From Maribacter spongiicola (lineage in GTDB: Bacteria > Bacteroidota > Bacteroidia > Flavobacteriales > Flavobacteriaceae): a stretch of 64,000 bases of DNA. The number at the start of each line of letters is the position of its first letter. The first letter of the stretch is position 1. Shown piece by piece: positions 30,770-39,600 of this stretch. Made by a program: the position numbers and the translations under genes. The DNA lies in NCBI RefSeq assembly GCF_004364165.1, contig NZ_SOAY01000014.1, positions 1 to 64,000 on the forward strand. The letters run 5' to 3'. A model generated the notes under the pieces. It saw only the letters and a program-made list of their open reading frames with translations, did no database searches and was not told the origin of the DNA.

Positions 30770-32974
30770 TTAGCCAATTACCGATTTTTCAGTAATAAAT
30801 GGTTGATTATAATGTCTTTGACCGGTAGCTTTATAAAGGGCATTTGCCAAAGCTCCGATAATAGGCGGCAATGAAGGCTCTCCTAATCCGGTAGGGTCTA
30901 TTCCATTATCCACAAAAAAGCTTTCAATTTCTTTCGGCGCTTCTTTATGTCGTATTAAGCGATAGGTGTCAAAATTCTTATGTTGAGGTTGTCCATTTTC
31001 AAAAGTCATTTCGCTATAGGTAGCGTGACCGATGCCATCAATGATTCCTCCTTCAATTTGATTTTTAGCAGCCATAGGGTTAATCACGATTCCGCAATCT
31101 ACGGCACACCATACTTTAGTAACTTTTGGTGATTTTGTATCGGTAGACATGTCTAAAACCTGGGCAACATAAGAGTTGTGGCAATAATAAGCCGAAACAC
31201 CTCTTGCAGCTCCGTTTTTCTGATTCCCGTCCCAACCAGCTTTTTCTCTTACCAATTTAAGAACACCTGCATAACGAACAGGGTCGTAGTCGTTACTTTC
31301 TGGTTCACCAACTGGGTTTTTAATAACTCTGTCAAATAACTCCAATCTAAATTCAATAGGGTCTTTACCTGCAGCTTCGGCAACTTCATCTAAGAATGCC
31401 TGTTCGGCTCCGGCAACAAAATTAGAACGTGGAGCACGCCATGCACCTGTAGTCACATTTGTTTCTAGACTAAATTTTTCAGCTAGGTAATTATCTACTG
31501 CACCTGCCGGAAATCTATTTTCAAATAGTAAATCATCATTAGATCCTGCACCTTTAACGTGCCATGCAATTAAATTACCTTCTTTATCTAAACCTGCTTT
31601 ATACTTTACTTTGTATGTTGGGCGGTAGGTACCTTGGGTCATATCATCTTCACGGGTGTACACCAATTTAATAGGTGCTTGTATGTGTTGAGAAATGACT
31701 GCGGCCTCCACACCGAATGTTCCATATAGACGACGACCAAAACCGCCACCCATACGACTCATCTCAATATCGATTTTTTCCACTGGCATGCCTAATCGAG
31801 AAGCCAGTGTCTTTTCTAAAAACTCAGGAGTTTGTATTGGTCCGTTGAACAAAGCTATTTCAGCAGTAACATCTGCATAAAAGTTCATAGGTTCCATGGT
31901 ATTATGCGCTAAAAAAGGAGCACTATAAGTACGTTCTATAATTTTATCTGCTTTTTTAAATGCACTAGCTACATTACCATCGTTACGAGCTGGTTGTTTG
32001 GAAGAAGTGTTCAATAATTTTGTCAAAGCCTCATCATGCCCTTTGGTACTTTCTAAAGCCGAAGATTCTTCCCATTCAACATTCAATGCTTTTTTAGCCT
32101 GCATACATTGCCAAGTACTTTCACCAACAATTGCTACAAGTTTATTAATGGCGCCGCCATCTGACCATTGTTTTTCAGTATCATCTTTGTAGACCTCAAT
32201 TGGGAAAACGTCTTTAATACCTGGCATAGATTTTACAGCATCCGCATTCATTGATTTATAGGTCAACCCAAAAGCAGGTGGATGCACAATCATGGCAATC
32301 ATCATTCCTTCTTGTTGAATATCTATACCGAATAAAGGTTTGCCAGTTATAATATTTGGACCATCAACATTTCGTCTATCCGTTCCGATAATATCGAAAT
32401 CCTTAGTTTCCTTCAAAGAAACTTCTTCAGGAACAGGCATCGTTGCAGCTTTTGAAGCCATCTCGCCAAAACTAGCAGATTTGTCAGAACCGGTATGGCT
32501 AATTATACCTGCATCTGTAGTAATTTCAGAAGCATCAACTTGCCATGCCTCGGCAGCTGCGGCAACTAACATATGTCTAGCAGTAGCACCTGCCATTCTT
32601 AATCCAGACCAACCAACACGAATAGACTGGCTACCACCTGCCAATTGTCTTTGAAAAATATCGGTATTTAAAGGCGCTTGTTCAACGATTACATTTTTCC
32701 AATCGACATCTAATTCATCTGCCACGATCATGGGCATAGAGGTCTTTACATTCTGTCCTATTTCTGGGTTAGGCGACATAATAGTTACCATGCCATTATC
32801 TCCAATTTTAAGAAAGCTATTAATATCGAACCATTCTTTTGGTATGTTACTTACTTGCTCAGGGGTTGGTTTACATGATGCTAGCCAACTGAAGCCTAAA
32901 ATCATACCGCCACCGGCAAGAGAACCGCTTTTTAAGAAAGAACGTCTGTTATATGTTGTTTTAATAAGTGTCAT
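30770..32974 (-). CDS. Molybdopterin-binding aldehyde/isoquinoline oxidoreductase large subunit (TAT-exported)
   Basis: A 734-residue xanthine-dehydrogenase-family large subunit of the IorB type. It has a twin-arginine signal (YNRRSFLKSGSLAGGG), so it is exported folded with its molybdenum cofactor. Cofactor motifs include MGGGFGRRLYG and GAWRAPRSN, and the C-terminal GLGEPSLPP carries the catalytic Glu of molybdenum hydroxylases. It oxidises an unknown aldehyde or N-heterocycle in the periplasm. The 2Fe-2S subunit gene is directly upstream (46-base gap), and electrons probably leave via a cytochrome not encoded here. Confidence 0.93.
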   Translation of the reverse strand: MTLIKTTYNRRSFLKSGSLAGGGMILGFSWLASCKPTPEQVSNIPKEWFDINSFLKIGDNGMVTIMSPNPEIGQNVKTSMPMIVADELDVDWKNVIVEQAPLNTDIFQRQLAGGSQSIRVGWSGLRMAGATARHMLVAAAAEAWQVDASEITTDAGIISHTGSDKSASFGEMASKAATMPVPEEVSLKETKDFDIIGTDRRNVDGPNIITGKPLFGIDIQQEGMMIAMIVHPPAFGLTYKSMNADAVKSMPGIKDVFPIEVYKDDTEKQWSDGGAINKLVAIVGESTWQCMQAKKALNVEWEESSALESTKGHDEALTKLLNTSSKQPARNDGNVASAFKKADKIIERTYSAPFLAHNTMEPMNFYADVTAEIALFNGPIQTPEFLEKTLASRLGMPVEKIDIEMSRMGGGFGRRLYGTFGVEAAVISQHIQAPIKLVYTREDDMTQGTYRPTYKVKYKAGLDKEGNLIAWHVKGAGSNDDLLFENRFPAGAVDNYLAEKFSLETNVTTGAWRAPRSNFVAGAEQAFLDEVAEAAGKDPIEFRLELFDRVIKNPVGEPESNDYDPVRYAGVLKLVREKAGWDGNQKNGAARGVSAYYCHNSYVAQVLDMSTDTKSPKVTKVWCAVDCGIVINPMAAKNQIEGGIIDGIGHATYSEMTFENGQPQHKNFDTYRLIRHKEAPKEIESFFVDNGIDPTGLGEPSLPPIIGALANALYKATGQRHYNQPFITEKSVIG

Positions 32975-33020
32975 TTGTATTTTTTTTGAAGGTTAAAATC
33001 CCAAAATTGTGGGCTTATAA

Positions 33021-33485
33021 TTACGCGTTAGAAATACTTGAAGCAATTTTAATTGCTTTCTTAATTCGCGTATACGTACCACAACGACAGATATTACCGT
33101 TCATAGCATCTTCAATTTCAGTATCAGTAGGGTTAGGATTTCGTTTTAAAAACGCACTGGCATTCATAATCTGTCCAGCCTGGCAATAACCGCATTGGTA
33201 CACATCTTCTTCTAACCAAGCCTTTTGAACCGGATGATCTCCGTTTTCAGAAAGTCCCTCAATAGTTGTTATTGATTGTTCACCAACCGCAGAAACTGGT
33301 AGTTGGCAAGAACGTACTGCATTATCGCCCAAGTGAACGGTACATGCACCACATTGTGCTATACCACAACCAAATTTTGTGCCTACCAATTTTAAATGAT
33401 CTCGTAATACCCAAAGCATTGGTGTAGTGGGATCTACATCTACTTCTTGGGTTTGTCCATTAATTTTTAAACTGAAATTTGCCAT
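33021..33485 (-). CDS. (2Fe-2S)-binding small subunit of molybdenum hydroxylase (IorA-like)
   Basis: A 154-residue protein with two 2Fe-2S centres: the plant-ferredoxin type (C-x4-C-x2-C in [19 protein letters not shown], with the fourth Cys in RSCQ) and the helical [10 protein letters not shown] / CRCGTYTRI pair. It carries electrons from the molybdenum site of the large subunit encoded just downstream. It has no signal peptide and is presumably exported through the TAT pathway bound to its partner. It is the first gene of the two-gene operon. Confidence 0.95.
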
Positions 33486-33806
33486 TCGTTTTTCCTATTT
33501 GTTTGAGTCCCATGAAATTAGGTATTTTTTTGGATAAATGAATGTGATTTAAGAACAAATAATCTTAAAGTTTCATTTGAATATTAAAAGGTGTTGCGAT
33601 ATAAAAGGTGTTTTAAATAAGAACAATCGTCCGCATGAAAAGGTTTTTTGTATGCAAGTAAAAAATGTCGTTTTCGATTTTCTTTTTTGACTTAAAACCG
33701 AAAGAGTTATTTAATTATTGAATAGTGGTATCTAAAAATTATCTATCCAAGTATTTTTATGGTAATGAACAATCCATACTTTTTTTTGGATATTAATCGA
33801 TTGAAA
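33486..33806. other. 321-bp divergent intergenic region
   Basis: AT-rich space between the IorA-like gene and the SbnA-like gene. I see no ORF, no convincing promoter match and no Fur-box-like palindrome. An open frame reaches back from the SbnA-like gene to 33759, but it codes for an implausible extension. Confidence 0.5.
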
Positions 33807-34820
33807 ATGATTACTCAAAATATAACACATACAATTTCAGAATCTATAGTAGATACCGTTGGTAACACACCTTTGGTTAAGCTGAACAAAATTAATAGGC
33901 AGGCAAATTTCAATTTGTACGGTAAGCTAGAAGCAGCTAATCCTGCAGGAAGCATTAAGGACAGAACCTCTCTTTTTATATTGCAACAAGCACTTGCAGA
34001 TGGCAGAATTAAAAAAGGAGATACGGTAATAGAATCTAGCTCAGGAAACATGGCAGTGGGTTTGGCTCAAGCCTGTTTATATTATGGTCTTAAATTAATA
34101 GTTGTAGTAGATCCTAAATTAAATTCACACACCGAAAAAATTCTGAATACTTATGGTGCTCGTATTGAAAAAGTTACCAAACCGAAAGAGAACGGAGGTT
34201 TTTTAGCAGCCAGATTAGAAAGGGTTCAATACTTATTAATCAGTATTCCTAATAGTTTTTGGTCTAATCAGTATGGCAATCAAGACAATCCGCTAACGCA
34301 TCATAAAACGATGACCGAGATGATGGATTCTCTACATGGAAAGTTAGATTACCTATTTGTAGCAACTAGTACTTGCGGAACCTTAATGGGCTGTGCGGAT
34401 TATATTTATGAAAACAATTTTGACACGAAAATCATTGCGGTAGATGCTGTTGGTAGTGTTCTTTTTGGTGGTCCGCCATTGAAAAGATTAATTCCTGGTC
34501 ATGGGGCAGGCGTGCCTTCTCAATTTTTAGATACGAATAAGATACACGATCATGTATATGTAGATGATGTTGACTGTGCTAAAGGTTGTTGGTCGTTGTT
34601 AGAAAATGAATCTATTTTATGTGGAGGTTCTTCTGGTGGTATGATCAGTGCCGTAAAAAAGTATAGTAAGCATATTGAAGAAGGTAGTAATTGTGCCTTG
34701 TTTTTATGCGATCGTGGAGAGCGCTATTTAGATACTATTTACAACAAAGAGTGGTTGTTGCATAAACTTCCAGAAAGTAGAAACGCTTTTACTCCGTTAG
34801 GAGGATGGCAGGTAGCATAA
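33807..34820 (+). CDS. sbnA: SbnA-like PLP enzyme (O-phosphoserine/glutamate condensing, diaminopropionate pathway)
   Basis: A 337-residue fold-type II PLP enzyme of the cysteine-synthase family that resembles SbnA along its whole length. The PLP Lys is K51 in NPAGSIKDRTS. SSGNMAVGLA, VVDPKLNSHTEKILNTYGA, AVDAVGSVLFGGPP and LCDRGERYLDTIYN track Staphylococcus aureus SbnA. SbnA condenses O-phospho-L-serine with glutamate to give ACEGA, the precursor of 2,3-diaminopropionate. The frame is open to 33759, but the Met at 33807 gives SbnA's N-terminal length. The FAD protein gene follows after 3 bases. A separate SbnB is absent from this window. Confidence 0.87.
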   Translation: MITQNITHTISESIVDTVGNTPLVKLNKINRQANFNLYGKLEAANPAGSIKDRTSLFILQQALADGRIKKGDTVIESSSGNMAVGLAQACLYYGLKLIVVVDPKLNSHTEKILNTYGARIEKVTKPKENGGFLAARLERVQYLLISIPNSFWSNQYGNQDNPLTHHKTMTEMMDSLHGKLDYLFVATSTCGTLMGCADYIYENNFDTKIIAVDAVGSVLFGGPPLKRLIPGHGAGVPSQFLDTNKIHDHVYVDDVDCAKGCWSLLENESILCGGSSGGMISAVKKYSKHIEEGSNCALFLCDRGERYLDTIYNKEWLLHKLPESRNAFTPLGGWQVA

Positions 34821-34823
34821 TCT

Positions 34824-36632
34824 ATGAATGACAACAACACATTTAAAATCGGCATTATAGGTTTTGGACCTAAAGGATTTTACGGTTTTGAAAGATTGGT
34901 GGCTTACTTGAATGAAGCTAAAATTTCCAAAACTACAGAAGTTCATATTTTCAACAACACAGCATTTCTAGCATCTGGCGATGTATATAGAACAGATCAG
35001 CCAGATTATTTAATAATGAATTATGCTAACCGTAATATTAATAGTTGGGTATTGAAAGAACCTTTTTCAATGGCTAGTGCAACTCCAGATTTTGTAACAT
35101 GGTTGACGGCGAAGGGTCACACCGATGCCGCTCAGGGAGAATATGCGCCTAGAGCTGTTGTAGGTAGCTATTTGGCAGATTGTTATCAGTTGGTATTAGA
35201 ACAATTACCAACGAATATAAAGGTAATTACCCATATTGGTAAGGTTACCGATATGATAAAACAAAACGAAAATTATCAAGTATTTTATACGGATAGGAAA
35301 AGTGGCGAACAAGATGTTGTAGCTTGTAATAATATTCTTTTTACAACCGGTCACCATTCCTTTAAAGCTCAAAAACCTGAAAGCGTAATTTCAAATCATA
35401 AGATTGATTTTATTTACCCTACGGATGAAAAGTTGAGTCCGGTTACACCACAATCACTAGTGGCTATAAAAGGATTCGGACTAACCGCTATTGATGCCAT
35501 TTTAGCATTGACCGAGGGTAGGGGAGCTATTTTTAAGAAGAATGACAAGGGCGTTTTAAGATATATCTCTTCAGAAAAAGAGCCTTATAAAATATATACC
35601 TTTTCAAGAACGGGATTGCCTATGGTACCCAGAAATGGTTCGCCAACTTCAGAAACAACACTTCAATTTTTCACAAAAGAAGTGGTTCAACACTTGAAAG
35701 CGAATACACCTATTAATTTTAATAGTACTCTTTTGCCATTAATAAAAAAGGAGTTTTACTACGCATTCTATAGTGTTCTGTTCAATAACAACGGGCATCA
35801 GTTTTACTACGATGATGATTTTACGGTGATGCAAAATCAGGTTCAATATTTTCACGAAGATTACCCTGAGAGTCCGGTTTTCAATTGGGAAACTATTGTA
35901 AATCCGTTTAAAGACGAGCATATTTTATCATCTGTTGTACTACAAGTTTATATTGGGTTTTTAATCGACGAAGCAAAATTGGGTGAAGATAAAAGTCCGT
36001 TTATGGCAGCAGTCGCCACATGGCGAAAAATTAGTCCGATATTCAATGAACTCTATAGTTTTGGAGGTTTAGATGCAGAATCGCATAAGGAGTTCGATAC
36101 CTATTATTTCGGACTCTTCAATAGATTGTCTTACGGACCACCGGTTAAGAATATGCAAAAAATACTGGCATTATGCAAAGCAGGAATTTTAGATTTCTCT
36201 TATGCAAAATCGGCAAGTATTACGCCAAATAGTGAGAACAATAATTTTACTATACAGGTAGAAAAGGGGCAGGCAACTGAAATAAATTACCTGATAAATG
36301 CCACCATAGCAAGAGCAAAAGAAAGTGGCTTTGGAAACGAATTATATCAAAATTTAAGTAAAAACGGACTTATACGAGAGTTTGAGAATACAGGCTATAT
36401 ACCGGGCTGTTTAGAGATAAATGACAAGGGGAATCCAATTTCAAAAATAGGAATAGTGAATAACGATATAACTTTTTATGGTACGCCAACAGAAGGTATA
36501 ACTTGCGATAATGACACCTTGTCAAGAACTAGAAATGATTTTGCAACAAATTGGGCAAAATCTACCACTGAAGCAATTAAAGAGAAAGATGGAAGAACAG
36601 AAGATTATGATAGAACAGAAAATGTACTATAA
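34824..36632 (+). CDS. FAD/NAD(P)-binding protein (NAD_binding_9 family)
   Basis: A 602-residue flavoprotein with the dinucleotide motif GIIGFGPKGFYGFERL at residues 9-24 and a second Rossmann-like region (VAIKGFGLTAIDAIL) near 215, matching the PF13454 FAD-NAD(P)-binding family. Such proteins are found beside SbnA- and Y4yA-like genes and are poorly characterised. It sits in the middle of the three-gene operon, where it may take the oxidative step done by SbnB in other diaminopropionate pathways (inference). Its 3' end overlaps the start of the Y4yA-like gene by up to 44 bases. There is no signal peptide, so it should be cytoplasmic. Confidence 0.82.
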   Translation: MNDNNTFKIGIIGFGPKGFYGFERLVAYLNEAKISKTTEVHIFNNTAFLASGDVYRTDQPDYLIMNYANRNINSWVLKEPFSMASATPDFVTWLTAKGHTDAAQGEYAPRAVVGSYLADCYQLVLEQLPTNIKVITHIGKVTDMIKQNENYQVFYTDRKSGEQDVVACNNILFTTGHHSFKAQKPESVISNHKIDFIYPTDEKLSPVTPQSLVAIKGFGLTAIDAILALTEGRGAIFKKNDKGVLRYISSEKEPYKIYTFSRTGLPMVPRNGSPTSETTLQFFTKEVVQHLKANTPINFNSTLLPLIKKEFYYAFYSVLFNNNGHQFYYDDDFTVMQNQVQYFHEDYPESPVFNWETIVNPFKDEHILSSVVLQVYIGFLIDEAKLGEDKSPFMAAVATWRKISPIFNELYSFGGLDAESHKEFDTYYFGLFNRLSYGPPVKNMQKILALCKAGILDFSYAKSASITPNSENNNFTIQVEKGQATEINYLINATIARAKESGFGNELYQNLSKNGLIREFENTGYIPGCLEINDKGNPISKIGIVNNDITFYGTPTEGITCDNDTLSRTRNDFATNWAKSTTEAIKEKDGRTEDYDRTENVL

Positions 36633-38076
36633 AGGAAAACCTAAGAATGAACTAAAACCGATTACTTCGAATTGGATGCATGAATTGTTCAATGATCATG
36701 CAGTGTTACGAGGTTTGGTTGAACGTTATGGTTCGCCAATAAATGTTCATCATTTACCGTCTTTCAATCAAAATTGCGAAAGCTACAAGCAGGTTTTTGA
36801 ATCGTACGGATTAAAATATAGAATTTTCTACGCTAGAAAGGCGAATAAATCTAAAGGTTTGGTAAAGCAAGCATTTGCATCAGGTATAGGTGTAGATACT
36901 GCCAGTTTTAAAGAATTGGAACAGTCATTATCGTTGGGCGGAAATGCTGAAAATTTGGTATTGACAGCAGCGATAAAAACAGAACCACAAATAGAATTGG
37001 CCATTAACAACGGTGTGCCTATTATCTTAGATAATGAAGATGAATGTAGGTTAACGCAAGCCGTTGCTACAAAATTGAATAAAAAGGCAAATGTAGGTTT
37101 CCGAATTAGCGGATTTGAAGTTGATGGCGAGAAGCTATATAGTCGTTTTGGTTTTGATGTAGATGAGGTTGTTGATTTTATTGGTTCTTATGTTGGTGAG
37201 GGCAAAACTTTCGATTTATTGGAAGTAACGGGACTTCATTTTCATTTAGATAGTTATTCTACTTATCAGCGAAGTGTAAGTTTAATAGCTAGTATAAAAA
37301 TTGTTTCAACCTTAAAAGAAAAAGGATATCCTGTTTCGTTTATAGACATAGGTGGTGGAATTCTAATGAACTATTTAGAAGATGAAAATGAATGGACGAG
37401 TTTTAATAAGAATTTAAAAGAAGCTGTATTAACGCAGCATAATGATATTACTTTCAATGATAATGGACTAGGTTTTAGATTAGAAGATGGTGAGTTGAGA
37501 GGTAAACTGAATACCTATCCGTTTTTCAATAAAATAAATAAAGGTTCTTTTATTGGAGAAGTACTAGATTTTATTGATGATGCATCCGGATCATCGGTGG
37601 CTTCGTTATTGCTTCAAAATGAGATTGAAATCCGCATTGAACCAGGTCGTTCATTATTGGACCAAGTAGGTATGACGGTAGCGAAAGTCATCCACCGAAA
37701 AAAAGATGCAAAAGGACAATGGTTGGTCGGTCTAGAAATGAATATGAGTCAGATGATGAGTTCTAGCGCAGATTTTTTATTAGACCCCTATATGCTGTAT
37801 TCAGAAGAAGTAAAGGAAGATGAATCTGTTGATGTATTTTTTACCGGAGCCTATTGCTTAGAAAGGGATGTGTTGTTAAAACGAAAAATCACCCTACCAA
37901 GATTACCTGCAATAGGAGAGTATGTAGCTTTTGTAAACACAGCTGGTTACATGATGCACTTTTTTGAAACCGAAGCACACCTTTTTGAATTATCTACTAA
38001 TTTAATATTTACGGGTGCTAACGAAAAGCTATCATTTTTTCAATTTATCGATGATAAAAAGATAGTGCTAGAATAA
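36589..38076 (+). CDS. Y4yA-family PLP-dependent decarboxylase-like enzyme
   Basis: A protein of about 495 residues with a fold-type III (alanine racemase/DAP decarboxylase) barrel. The PLP Lys is in FYARKANKS, followed by GIGVDTASFKELEQSL, GLHFHLDSY, FIDIGGGI, RIEPGRSLLDQVG and CLERDVL, all group-IV decarboxylase features. It resembles Y4yA of rhizobia, a lone LysA-like protein of siderophore-type gene clusters. The start is uncertain: ATGs at 36589, 36607 and 36622 all lie inside the end of the preceding gene, and 36589 has a purine-rich AAAGAGAAAG just before it. It probably decarboxylates the product of the two upstream enzymes. Confidence 0.84.
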   Translation: MEEQKIMIEQKMYYKGKPKNELKPITSNWMHELFNDHAVLRGLVERYGSPINVHHLPSFNQNCESYKQVFESYGLKYRIFYARKANKSKGLVKQAFASGIGVDTASFKELEQSLSLGGNAENLVLTAAIKTEPQIELAINNGVPIILDNEDECRLTQAVATKLNKKANVGFRISGFEVDGEKLYSRFGFDVDEVVDFIGSYVGEGKTFDLLEVTGLHFHLDSYSTYQRSVSLIASIKIVSTLKEKGYPVSFIDIGGGILMNYLEDENEWTSFNKNLKEAVLTQHNDITFNDNGLGFRLEDGELRGKLNTYPFFNKINKGSFIGEVLDFIDDASGSSVASLLLQNEIEIRIEPGRSLLDQVGMTVAKVIHRKKDAKGQWLVGLEMNMSQMMSSSADFLLDPYMLYSEEVKEDESVDVFFTGAYCLERDVLLKRKITLPRLPAIGEYVAFVNTAGYMMHFFETEAHLFELSTNLIFTGANEKLSFFQFIDDKKIVLE

Positions 38077-38672: not shown

Positions 38673-38975
38673 ATGGATATTATTTATGAATATGACGGCG
38701 TAACCGCTAGTCAAAGATTAGAGAGTTTTGCAGAAGAGAAGTTGAATAAGCTTCACCAAAAGTTTGATGATATTATTAGAGCAGATGTATTCTTGAAACA
38801 AGAAAACACATCATCAGATGAAACAGGCATGATTTGCAACATACGTTTAAGCTTACCAGGACCACGAATTTTTGTTGAAGCCAGTAATCAGAATTTTGAA
38901 GAGTCTGTCATTGAATCAGTTAGTGAGCTAGAAAGACAATTAAAAAAGCGAAAAGATAAAATGAGAGCTTATTAA
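38673..38975 (+). CDS. hpf: Ribosome hibernation-promoting factor (HPF/RaiA, short form)
   Basis: A 100-residue short-form HPF/YfiA protein that binds the 30S decoding region and silences ribosomes in stationary phase. Typical features are the opening strand (MDIIYEYDGVTASQRLESFAEEKLNKLHQKFDDIIRA, then an acidic loop), VEASNQNFEESV and the basic C-terminal helix LERQLKKRKDK. It lacks the dimerising C-terminal domain of long HPF. A 15-bp hairpin lies directly upstream of its start. Confidence 0.92.
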   Translation: MDIIYEYDGVTASQRLESFAEEKLNKLHQKFDDIIRADVFLKQENTSSDETGMICNIRLSLPGPRIFVEASNQNFEESVIESVSELERQLKKRKDKMRAY

Positions 38976-38984
38976 CATACGATT

Positions 38985-39080
38985 ATGAAAAAGGCATTAA
39001 TACTATATTTTGGTAAAAAGTTCTATAAAAACTGGTTAAAACGAAAACGTGCTAAACAATCTAATAAAGCAATGAGATAA
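38985..39080 (+). CDS. Very small basic ORF (31 aa)
   Basis: ATG at 38985, 10 bases after the hpf stop, opens a 31-codon frame giving a strongly basic peptide (MKKALILYFGKKFYKNWLK, then KRKRAKQ). It is followed by a good terminator at 39104. Its place between hpf and the terminator and its non-random basic composition suggest a real co-transcribed small protein. I recognise no family, and coding potential cannot be judged on this length alone. Confidence 0.4.
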   Translation: MKKALILYFGKKFYKNWLKRKRAKQSNKAMR

Positions 39081-39103
39081 CTCATTTAATTAGGACATAA
39101 AAA

Positions 39104-39130
39104 AATCCCTTGCCATTGCAAGGGATTTTT
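39104..39130. terminator. Bidirectional intrinsic terminator
   Basis: AATCCCTTGC / GCAAGGGATT, a 10-bp stem with a 4-base loop, has As before and Ts after it. It lies between the hpf transcript and the convergent DUF2383 gene. Confidence 0.9.
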
Positions 39131-39147
39131 ACTTTTTAGATGTTCTA

Positions 39148-39600
39148 TTATCTGTGGTGCTCTAAAATTTCGGTAGTTTCTAAATCATTCTGCAAGAATT
39201 CTTTTTGCGCTCTAATAATTTCTTTTAAGCGGTGTGGCATCATAACTTCTGCAAGTGCATTATCATAATCATTAATTGCAGCTTTATCACCTCTAACAGC
39301 TTCTTCTAACATTGCTTCATCATTGTCCTCTGCAAAAAATGCTTTTACATCCATCCAAGTTCTATGTAATGTACCGGCTGCACTACCTTCAATTTCTACG
39401 CTACCTAAATCTAGTTCTGGCACAGATGCTCTAAGTTCTCTTAAAAACTGCATGCGGTCAACTACTTTCTTTTCAAAGTAACTTTTAATTCCTACTTGTT
39501 TAGAATTTTCAGATGCTTTTTCAAATCCTTTGATGGCATCTTCATTTTTACTTACCAAGTCTTTTAAATGGTCTTCAATTTTTGCTATATCAGTATTCAT
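39148..39600 (-). CDS. DUF2383 / PA2169 family four-helix-bundle protein
   Basis: A 150-residue all-helical protein of the ferritin-like PA2169 (DUF2383) family, with DIAKIEDHLKDLVSKNEDAIKGFEKA at the start and TLHRTWMDVKAFF and ALAEVMMPH later. Its role is unknown; members are often stress-induced. It is transcribed alone, convergent with hpf, in a neighbourhood of stress-type genes. Confidence 0.87.
   Translation of the reverse strand: MNTDIAKIEDHLKDLVSKNEDAIKGFEKASENSKQVGIKSYFEKKVVDRMQFLRELRASVPELDLGSVEIEGSAAGTLHRTWMDVKAFFAEDNDEAMLEEAVRGDKAAINDYDNALAEVMMPHRLKEIIRAQKEFLQNDLETTEILEHHR

What the first reader, a model, noticed from the sequence alone, without database searches (positions are those of the whole stretch)
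33807..38076. Three-gene SbnA / FAD protein / Y4yA decarboxylase cluster: candidate unknown diaminopropionate-derived metabolite
Seen: an SbnA-like synthase (K51 PLP Lys), a PF13454-like FAD/NAD(P)-binding protein and a Y4yA-type group-IV PLP decarboxylase, with gaps or overlaps of 3 and about -44 bases. Known: SbnA makes the ACEGA precursor of 2,3-diaminopropionate, normally split by the NAD enzyme SbnB. Inference: no SbnB is present here, so the FAD protein may do that step and Y4yA may decarboxylate the product. No IucA/IucC or NRPS gene is adjacent in the window, so the product might be a small amine or amino acid, not a classic siderophore. Expression control is not visible.
Basis: partly seen in the sequence, partly recalled or inferred. 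Interest (0 to 1): 0.72.

Follow-up and report, generated by a model that had tools for sequence, protein, structure and literature searches.

The report
Three-gene orphan amine pathway in Maribacter
A marine bacterium carries three neighbouring genes, kept together in the same order in many other bacteria and often beside stress-response genes, that look like a complete pathway making a small, still unknown nitrogen-containing molecule, probably from serine phosphate and glutamate.

Summary
SbnA, an FAD protein and a Y4yA-type decarboxylase form one tight run in a Maribacter-like genome. Of 78 loci fetched by Y4yA similarity alone, 74 carry all three in the same order; SbnA and the FAD protein are fused in 8 of the 74. 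SbnA keeps the O-phosphoserine-selecting residues and is not a plain cysteine synthase. No SbnB passes its cut-off in the window's genome or in 50 triad genomes tested; IucA/IucC is absent from 49 of the 50. The FAD protein's only full-length sequence relative in the PDB, and by far its best fold match, is the aspartate N-hydroxylase FzmM, not an SbnB-like dehydrogenase; most aspartate-binding residues are changed, so its substrate probably differs. DUF421 lies near the triad in 19 of 50 loci against 0.24 expected, beside other stress-type genes. Best reading: a free-standing three-enzyme pathway in which an N-oxygenase stands in for SbnB, ending in a decarboxylated 2-aminoethyl (hydroxyl)amine. 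Substrates and product are unproven.

The parts
33759..34820 (+). SbnA-type PLP synthase (start 33759 or 33807); predicted O-phosphoserine + L-Glu -> ACEGA
   Evidence: TIGR03945 402.6 bits, cut-off 349.95; closest solved relative S. aureus SbnA 5d84, E 3.3e-73; R132/Y152/S185 equivalents kept
34824..36632 (+). FAD/NADP-binding N-hydroxylase-like flavoprotein (PF13454), FzmM/CreE fold
   Evidence: phmmer to 8cp2 E 7e-28 over residues 8-560; AF2 model mean pLDDT 91.8; VIA Z 37.2 to 8cp5, next entry after 8cp5/8cp2 Z 20.0
36589..38076 (+). Y4yA-type group IV (fold type III) PLP decarboxylase; start 36589 or 36607
   Evidence: PF02784; K82, H215, H217, G253-G255, E349, G351, R352, C421, E423 (A2 numbering, residue 1 = base 36595) invariant in 46 of 46; best fold DAP decarboxylase 4xg1 Z 32.5

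Best explanation
A free-standing three-step pathway to a small amine, read in gene order. (1) SbnA joins O-phospho-L-serine and L-glutamate to ACEGA, N-(2-amino-2-carboxyethyl)-L-glutamate (inferred from curated score and residues). (2) The FAD/NADPH enzyme, an FzmM/CreE-fold N-monooxygenase, acts on ACEGA in place of SbnB: it oxygenates the bridging nitrogen, and a hydroxylamine/nitrone intermediate hydrolyses to 2-oxoglutarate plus N3-hydroxy-2,3-diaminopropionate (family shown; substrate and product inferred). (3) The Y4yA decarboxylase removes the alpha carboxyl, giving 2-(hydroxyamino)ethylamine or, if the flavoenzyme only releases Dap, ethylenediamine (inferred). No ligase, transporter or receptor family is constant beside the triad, so the product is probably small and intracellular or freely diffusing (inferred). 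The recurring neighbours suggest use under general stress (association shown, role inferred). My odds by part: one conserved pathway 0.9; SbnA chemistry 0.75; FAD protein is an NADPH/O2 N-oxygenase 0.65; it acts directly on ACEGA 0.4; Y4yA acts last 0.55.
For: Same-order triad in 74 of 78 loci; 8 of 74 have SbnA and FAD in one open frame, arguing that the FAD enzyme handles SbnA's product. SbnA over cut-off in 3 of 198 phylum genomes (the window's own and two others); all 3 have the contiguous triad. SbnA residues R132 74/74, Y152 74/74, S185 73/74 in triad loci, against Y/Y/G in two own-genome paralogues (so R132 and S185 discriminate, Y152 does not). FAD protein: 8cp2/8cp5 first by sequence and fold with a wide margin; catalytic N62 kept in 79/79, R266 as R/K in 79/79; G217, G219, L220, D224 of the second dinucleotide motif invariant in A1. 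No SbnB over cut-off in 50 triad genomes. The third gene beside more distant SbnA-like + Y4yA pairs is annotated OCD or octopine-DH. DUF421 near the triad in 19 of 50 against 0.24 expected.
Against: No product or activity is known. The FAD enzyme's substrate is unresolved: 22-23% identity to FzmM, most of the aspartate chamber altered. FzmM/CreE/PcxL substrates are primary amines (PMC10404684, parts 1-3 of 6 read), not secondary amines such as the ACEGA nitrogen. Below 8cp2/8cp5, FAD/NADP reductases (YpdA, Z 20.0) score as high as other N-hydroxylases (PvdA, Z 18.7), so the shared core alone does not prove oxygenase activity. Decarboxylation before oxygenation fits the operon too. One triad genome (Chloroflexi) has a sub-cut-off SbnB-like gene (148 bits). 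DUF421 is not within 10 kb in the 11 Maribacter loci, so the stress link is indirect for the window itself. Loci were found with patterns from the window's own Y4yA and lean to relatives of 42% identity or more. The distance correlations (r 0.89-0.92) have no control for shared species history.
Confidence: 0.35

Rival explanations
1. One reading: the FAD protein is an oxidase/dehydrogenase substitute for SbnB that splits ACEGA to plain L-Dap + 2-oxoglutarate, and Y4yA decarboxylates Dap to ethylenediamine.
For: No SbnB over cut-off in 50 triad genomes; the same slot is annotated OCD or octopine-DH in distant clusters; flavin amine oxidation to an imine is ordinary chemistry (knowledge); NADP reductases also match the core fold.
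Against: The only full-length sequence relative in the PDB is a class B N-hydroxylase, and its helical substrate domain and Asn62 are kept, a design for O2 activation.
Confidence: 0.2
2. Chelator route: Y4yA first decarboxylates ACEGA to N-(2-aminoethyl)-L-glutamate, and the FAD enzyme then N-hydroxylates it to a small hydroxylamine-aminocarboxylate metal ligand, in the manner of EDDS-type aminopolycarboxylates.
For: Distant Y4yA + SbnA-like clusters with OCD, MATE exporter and iron-type ABC importer exist (M. avium plasmid with OCD and MATE), resembling an EDDS-type layout (EDDS gene content recalled). DfoA and putrescine hydroxylase, which N-hydroxylate terminal amines, are among the fold matches.
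Against: None of the tested OCD, octopine-DH, IucA/C, MATE, MFS or TonB references matched a triad locus at E 1e-6 (positive controls). SbnA-FAD fusions (8 of 74) suggest FAD acts before Y4yA.
Confidence: 0.2
3. The FAD enzyme is an aspartate N-hydroxylase (CreE/FzmM) supplying nitrite or nitrosuccinate for N-N bond chemistry on Dap, as debated for alanosine.
For: Best homologue is FzmM-type; alanosine clusters pair Dap with CreE/CreD homologues (PMC7347517 and PMC11705231, passages).
Against: R412 is not Arg in any of 79 sequences, N413 is Asn in 4 of 79, R416 is mostly Asn (59 of 79), R276 is Arg in 6 of 79. No neighbour family beyond the triad is in more than 21 of the 84 loci clustered, so no lyase partner is constant; a CreD model was not searched.
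Confidence: 0.07
4. Ordinary chromosomal genes that happen to be adjacent; SbnA is a plain cysteine synthase.
For: Shared fold and sub-cut-off scores with cysteine synthase families.
Against: Order kept in 74 of 78 loci, fusions, SbnA-type residues, score over the equivalog cut-off.
Confidence: 0.03

Closest known systems
Staphyloferrin B / SbnA-SbnB 2,3-diaminopropionate pathway (with SbnH decarboxylase)
   Same: True SbnA by curated score and OPS residues; a group IV PLP decarboxylase is present (SbnH 6knh at Z 28.4, rank 44).
   Different: No SbnB over cut-off and no IucA/IucC in the own genome; a flavoprotein sits in the second position.
FzmM/CreE aspartate N-hydroxylase (8cp2)
   Same: Full-length sequence and fold match, FAD + NADP domains, catalytic Asn62.
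   Different: Most aspartate-binding residues replaced; Trp51 is Tyr (77) or Phe (2) in 79 sequences; no constant neighbour that could be the lyase partner.
Rhizobial y4x/y4yA-type clusters (Y4yA + SbnA-like + octopine-DH + IucA/IucC + MFS)
   Same: Y4yA-family decarboxylase next to an SbnA-like enzyme.
   Different: Octopine-DH instead of the FAD protein, siderophore synthetase present, SbnA-like enzyme has Ser at 152 and Gly at 185.
OCD + SbnA-like + Y4yA-type + MATE clusters (Rhizobium, Aureimonas, M. avium plasmid)
   Same: SbnA-like enzyme + third enzyme + Y4yA-type decarboxylase core.
   Different: OCD instead of the FAD protein; exporter (and, in two of three, an ABC importer) present; SbnA-like enzyme has Gly at 185.

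Membership tests
SbnA (TIGR03945) | Score over curated equivalog cut-off | tested here: met
   402.6 bits against 349.95
SbnA (TIGR03945) | OPS-selecting residues Arg132, Tyr152, Ser185 (named in PMC12414870, passages) | tested here: met
   R152, Y172, S204 in the window; R 74/74, Y 74/74, S 73/74 in triad loci; own paralogues Y/Y/G, so Tyr152 does not discriminate
SbnA (TIGR03945) | Makes ACEGA from O-phosphoserine + L-Glu | not testable with these tools
   needs purified enzyme
FzmM/CreE L-aspartate N-hydroxylase | Three-domain FAD/NADP/helical fold over the whole length | tested here: met
   VIA Z 37.2, rmsd 2.5, 559 residues to 8cp5; next entry after 8cp5/8cp2 Z 20.0
FzmM/CreE L-aspartate N-hydroxylase | Catalytic Asn62 over flavin C4a | tested here: met
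   N in 79/79
FzmM/CreE L-aspartate N-hydroxylase | Aspartate/sulfate chamber residues Arg276, Arg412, Asn413, Arg416 | tested here: not met
   window S, P, N at 412, 413, 416 in both alignments; at 276 E or T depending on the alignment. Kept: Arg266 (R/K 79/79), Arg409 (R 62/79); Arg13 is Lys in 76/79
FzmM/CreE L-aspartate N-hydroxylase | Arg577 and the tunnel-mouth Arg593/Arg597 | not tested
   outside the printed alignment used (residues 4-569)
Group IV (fold type III) PLP decarboxylase | PLP Lys, HxH, GGG, E(P)GR and catalytic Cys positions (motif roles recalled) | tested here: met
   K82, H215, H217, G253-255, E349, G351, R352, C421 invariant in 46 of 46; P350 in 90% or more; fold Z 32.5 to DAP decarboxylase
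SbnA-SbnB Dap pathway | SbnB (TIGR03944) present | tested here: not met
   own genome best 28.7 bits against 326.9; 0 of 50 triad genomes over cut-off, one with a 148-bit hit
NIS siderophore cluster | IucA/IucC synthetase with the core genes | tested here: not met
   0 in own genome; 1 of 50 triad genomes has it, about 15 kb from its triad in what looks, from sequence starts only, like a separate hydroxamate-type cluster
EDDS-type chelator cluster | OCD-type enzyme and exporter beside the SbnA-like and decarboxylase genes (layout recalled) | tested here: not met
   no OCD or MATE homologue of the references in the triad loci at E 1e-6; positive controls found

The most novel reading that the evidence does not exclude
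A widespread, patchily distributed stress metabolite pathway in which an NADPH/O2 N-oxygenase, sometimes fused to SbnA, breaks ACEGA oxidatively and so makes N-hydroxy-diaminopropionate. Y4yA turns this into 2-(hydroxyamino)ethylamine, a small intracellular hydroxylamine used by marine Bacteroidota and others in general stress.
Probability: 0.2. Interest if true: 0.8.

Novelty: new variant of a known kind. Interest (0 to 1): 0.6.

Why it matters
It would be a compact three-enzyme pathway built on the siderophore enzyme SbnA but with neither SbnB nor a dedicated assembly enzyme, found in Bacteroidota, on Sulfitobacter plasmids, on a Tsukamurella plasmid, and in single records titled Chloroflexi and Kiritimatiellaeota. 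It offers a directly testable route to a new N-oxygenated small amine and a chemical lead on gene islands with DUF421, catalase, Ku and LigD. It also shows that Y4yA-type decarboxylases pair with three different enzyme types in the same slot (OCD, octopine-DH, flavin N-oxygenase), which helps to decode related metallophore clusters.

Tried and rejected
Plain cysteine synthase: rejected by curated score and residues. Defence function: no PADLOC match for the three proteins. Classic siderophore: no IucA/C in the own genome; none of the tested OCD, octopine-DH, IucA/C, MATE, MFS or TonB references matched the triad loci at E 1e-6. The TonB test used one siderophore receptor; a family of large SusC/TonB-like proteins (named from sequence only) occurs in 16 loci and was not pursued. 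Aspartate N-hydroxylase proper: residues changed. Thallusin link (known from Maribacter): one paper search, four papers listed, not opened; presence of the triad in unrelated bacteria makes it unlikely. Print search for this triad: 'Y4yA' gave 4 papers, by listing on rhizobial or other T3SS topics (not opened); y4x gene names gave 6 (not opened); others (6 papers; 7 papers; 12 listed of 422, none of those 12 holding SbnA) showed no title or opening abstract line that describes it; subscription journals are not held. PMC9248904 (passages) says SbnA/SbnB subclusters are abundant in Bacteroidetes gene clusters, a different arrangement. EDDS papers were seen as passages only and did not give the gene functions, so the EDDS layout is recalled. 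Outlying homologues: FAD relatives in G002 (28%) and G103 have no SbnA or Y4yA homologue in the fetched stretch; a Y4yA relative in G045 sits with an SbnA-like gene in another cluster. A Bacteroidetes-type promoter pattern upstream of SbnA was not found by a simple search. Adenylation-type motif hits: L055, L071 and Sulfitobacter L081 (annotated AMP-binding protein); not constant.
Full report
OBSERVATION. The window lies in G000, a 4.46 Mb genome with 35 others held in its genus; the genus name is inferred, as the eleven most similar Y4yA loci are all Maribacter. Three genes run on the + strand: SbnA 33759-34820, an FAD protein 34824-36632 and a Y4yA-type decarboxylase ending at 38076. Family scores confirm the calls.

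CONSERVATION. A pattern scan of the species-genome collection with the Y4yA protein alone gave 78 loci. In 74 of the 78 the SbnA-FAD-Y4yA order is complete. L046 and L055 are cut by the contig end before SbnA, L013 is a broken remnant, and L063 holds Y4yA alone. Eight of the 74 have SbnA and the FAD protein as one open frame: Zunongwangia, Mesonia and Salegentibacter loci L024-L029, L038, L043. Pairwise distances of the three proteins correlate at r 0.91, 0.92 and 0.89; shared species history was not controlled for. As a second test, the same 198 phylum genomes were searched for each gene. SbnA exceeds its curated cut-off in 3, one of them the window's own genome, and these 3 have the FAD and Y4yA genes contiguous with it. 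Two genomes had only a weaker FAD relative, two only a weaker Y4yA relative, and 189 of 198 had sub-cut-off cysteine-synthase-like matches or better to the SbnA model. In the genus, 16 of 36 genomes match the FAD protein, one of them weakly at 26% identity, so the triad is patchy. Outside Bacteroidota it occurs on Sulfitobacter plasmids, on a Tsukamurella plasmid with a divergent FAD gene, and in single records titled Chloroflexi (MAG), Kiritimatiellaeota and Thalassovita (MAG, may be misbinned).

SBNA. The closest solved relative is S. aureus SbnA. PMC12414870 (passages) names Arg132, Tyr152 and Ser185 as the residues for selective O-phosphoserine binding. All three are kept in the window, with R 74/74, Y 74/74 and S 73/74 (L033 has Gly) in the triad loci. 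The two paralogues of the same genome have Y, Y and G, so Arg132 and Ser185 discriminate and Tyr152 does not. SbnA-like enzymes of the OCD and octopine-DH clusters have Gly at 185. The second substrate (Glu) is inferred from family knowledge.

FAD PROTEIN. A PDB sequence search up to E 1 finds one distinct relative, 8cp2, over residues 8-560. A profile of 47 family members again puts 8cp2 first (E 2.9e-59), followed by weak partial hits to flavin monooxygenases (best E 0.0005) and ferredoxin-NADP reductases. 8cp2 is the L-aspartate N-hydroxylase of PMC10404684 (parts 1-3 of 6 read). The AlphaFold model has mean pLDDT 91.8. Its best solved fold is again 8cp2/8cp5 (Foldseek E 3.1e-42; VIA Z 37.2, rmsd 2.5, 559 aligned). 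The next entries are the reductase YpdA at Z 20.0 and the N-hydroxylase PvdA at 18.7, so it is the full-length match to FzmM, with its helical domain, that points to an N-hydroxylase. Catalytic Asn62 is kept in 79 of 79 sequences, Arg266 is R or K in 79 of 79, and Arg409 is R in 62 of 79. Trp51 is Tyr or Phe in 79 of 79. The aspartate chamber residues Arg412, Asn413 and Arg416 are S, P and N in the window and mostly replaced throughout. So it is built like an N-monooxygenase but probably does not take aspartate.

DECARBOXYLASE. PLP Lys, HxH, GGG, the E, G and R of EPGR, and the catalytic Cys are invariant in 46 of 46 (motif roles recalled). The AlphaFold model has mean pLDDT 88.1. Its best folds are diaminopimelate decarboxylases, with SbnH at Z 28.4. 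It should be active; the substrate is open.

WHAT IS MISSING. SbnB: best own-genome hit 28.7 bits against a cut-off of 326.9; 0 of 50 triad genomes over cut-off, one (G233, the Chloroflexi genome of L060) with a 148-bit hit. IucA/IucC: none in the own genome and 1 of 50 triad genomes, an uncultured Aquimarina where two such genes lie about 15 kb from the triad, in what looks from sequence starts like a separate hydroxamate-type cluster. None of the OCD, octopine-DH, IucA/C, MATE, MFS or TonB references matched a triad locus at E 1e-6, while each was found in its own source cluster or that of a relative. NRPS condensation domains exist in the own genome, on another contig.

THE SLOT. In more distant clusters a Y4yA-type decarboxylase pairs with an SbnA-like enzyme and either a gene annotated ornithine cyclodeaminase (Rhizobium, M. 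avium plasmid, Aureimonas) or an octopine/nopaline dehydrogenase plus IucA/IucC (S. meliloti, Bradyrhizobium). Both enzyme types can make or break a C-N bond of the ACEGA type (knowledge). In the triad the flavin enzyme holds this place, and in 8 loci it is fused to SbnA.

CONTEXT. No other gene is constant beside the triad. The commonest neighbour family is DUF421/YetF (Pfam on one member), in 21 loci (one of them, L063, without the triad) of 10 named genera plus two unnamed MAGs, upstream or downstream. For 50 genomes, the number of DUF421 genes and the genome sizes predict 0.24 loci with DUF421 in the flanks; 19 were seen, and the maximum of 100,000 simulations was 4. The 12 of 62 loci left out hold one more (L036). 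Related species inflate this (6 loci are Leeuwenhoekiella), but genera and arrangements differ. SDR (15 loci), catalase (14), LigD (8) and Ku (7) families recur too (Pfam on single members); their enrichment was not tested. The Maribacter loci lack DUF421 within 10 kb. The window has a ribosome hibernation factor and a DUF2383 gene just downstream.

MECHANISM AND NOVELTY. I commit to OPS + Glu -> ACEGA -> N-oxygenation and cleavage -> decarboxylation, ending in a 2-aminoethyl (hydroxyl)amine, at 0.35 for the whole chain. The Dap/ethylenediamine version and the 'decarboxylate first' chelator version are the serious rivals. I found no paper describing the triad in the searches, within their listings. 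It is a new variant of the SbnA-type pathways, not a categorically new kind.

Noticed in passing
window 30770-33485 (-): Divergent two-subunit molybdenum aldehyde/xanthine oxidoreductase-type pair (large subunit and 2Fe-2S small subunit, sub-cut-off matches only), kept beside the triad in 11 Maribacter loci.
   Followed up: no
window 38673-39600: Ribosome hibernation promoting factor (TIGR00741 over cut-off) and a DUF2383 gene just downstream of the triad, both stationary-phase or stress type by recall.
   Followed up: partly
L094 5259-10750; L083 9012-13816; L098 6997-11793: OCD + SbnA-like + Y4yA-type + MATE exporter clusters on Mycobacterium avium, Rhizobium and Aureimonas plasmids, two with an iron-type ABC importer: candidate EDDS-like chelator loci.
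   Followed up: partly
L087 3880-9520: Unnamed Bacteroidota genome with Y4yA-like (31%), SbnA-like (26%), an aminotransferase-like and an FAD-protein-like gene in a row (last two named from sequence starts only): another unexplained cluster around the same pair.
   Followed up: no
L013 9346-11464: Decayed triad in Maribacter sp. ACAM166: SbnA and Y4yA in fragments, no FAD match.
   Followed up: no
L063 10013-11470: Mesonia algae has a second, solitary Y4yA gene with DUF421, catalase-type and SDR-type family members in the same locus.
   Followed up: no
L082 10385-11905: The Tsukamurella plasmid FAD relative is an open frame of about 507 aa but only a short hypothetical protein is annotated there.
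   Followed up: no
L089 6270-7811: The genome's second PF13454 flavoprotein (513 aa), without SbnA or Y4yA homologues in the fetched stretch.
   Followed up: partly
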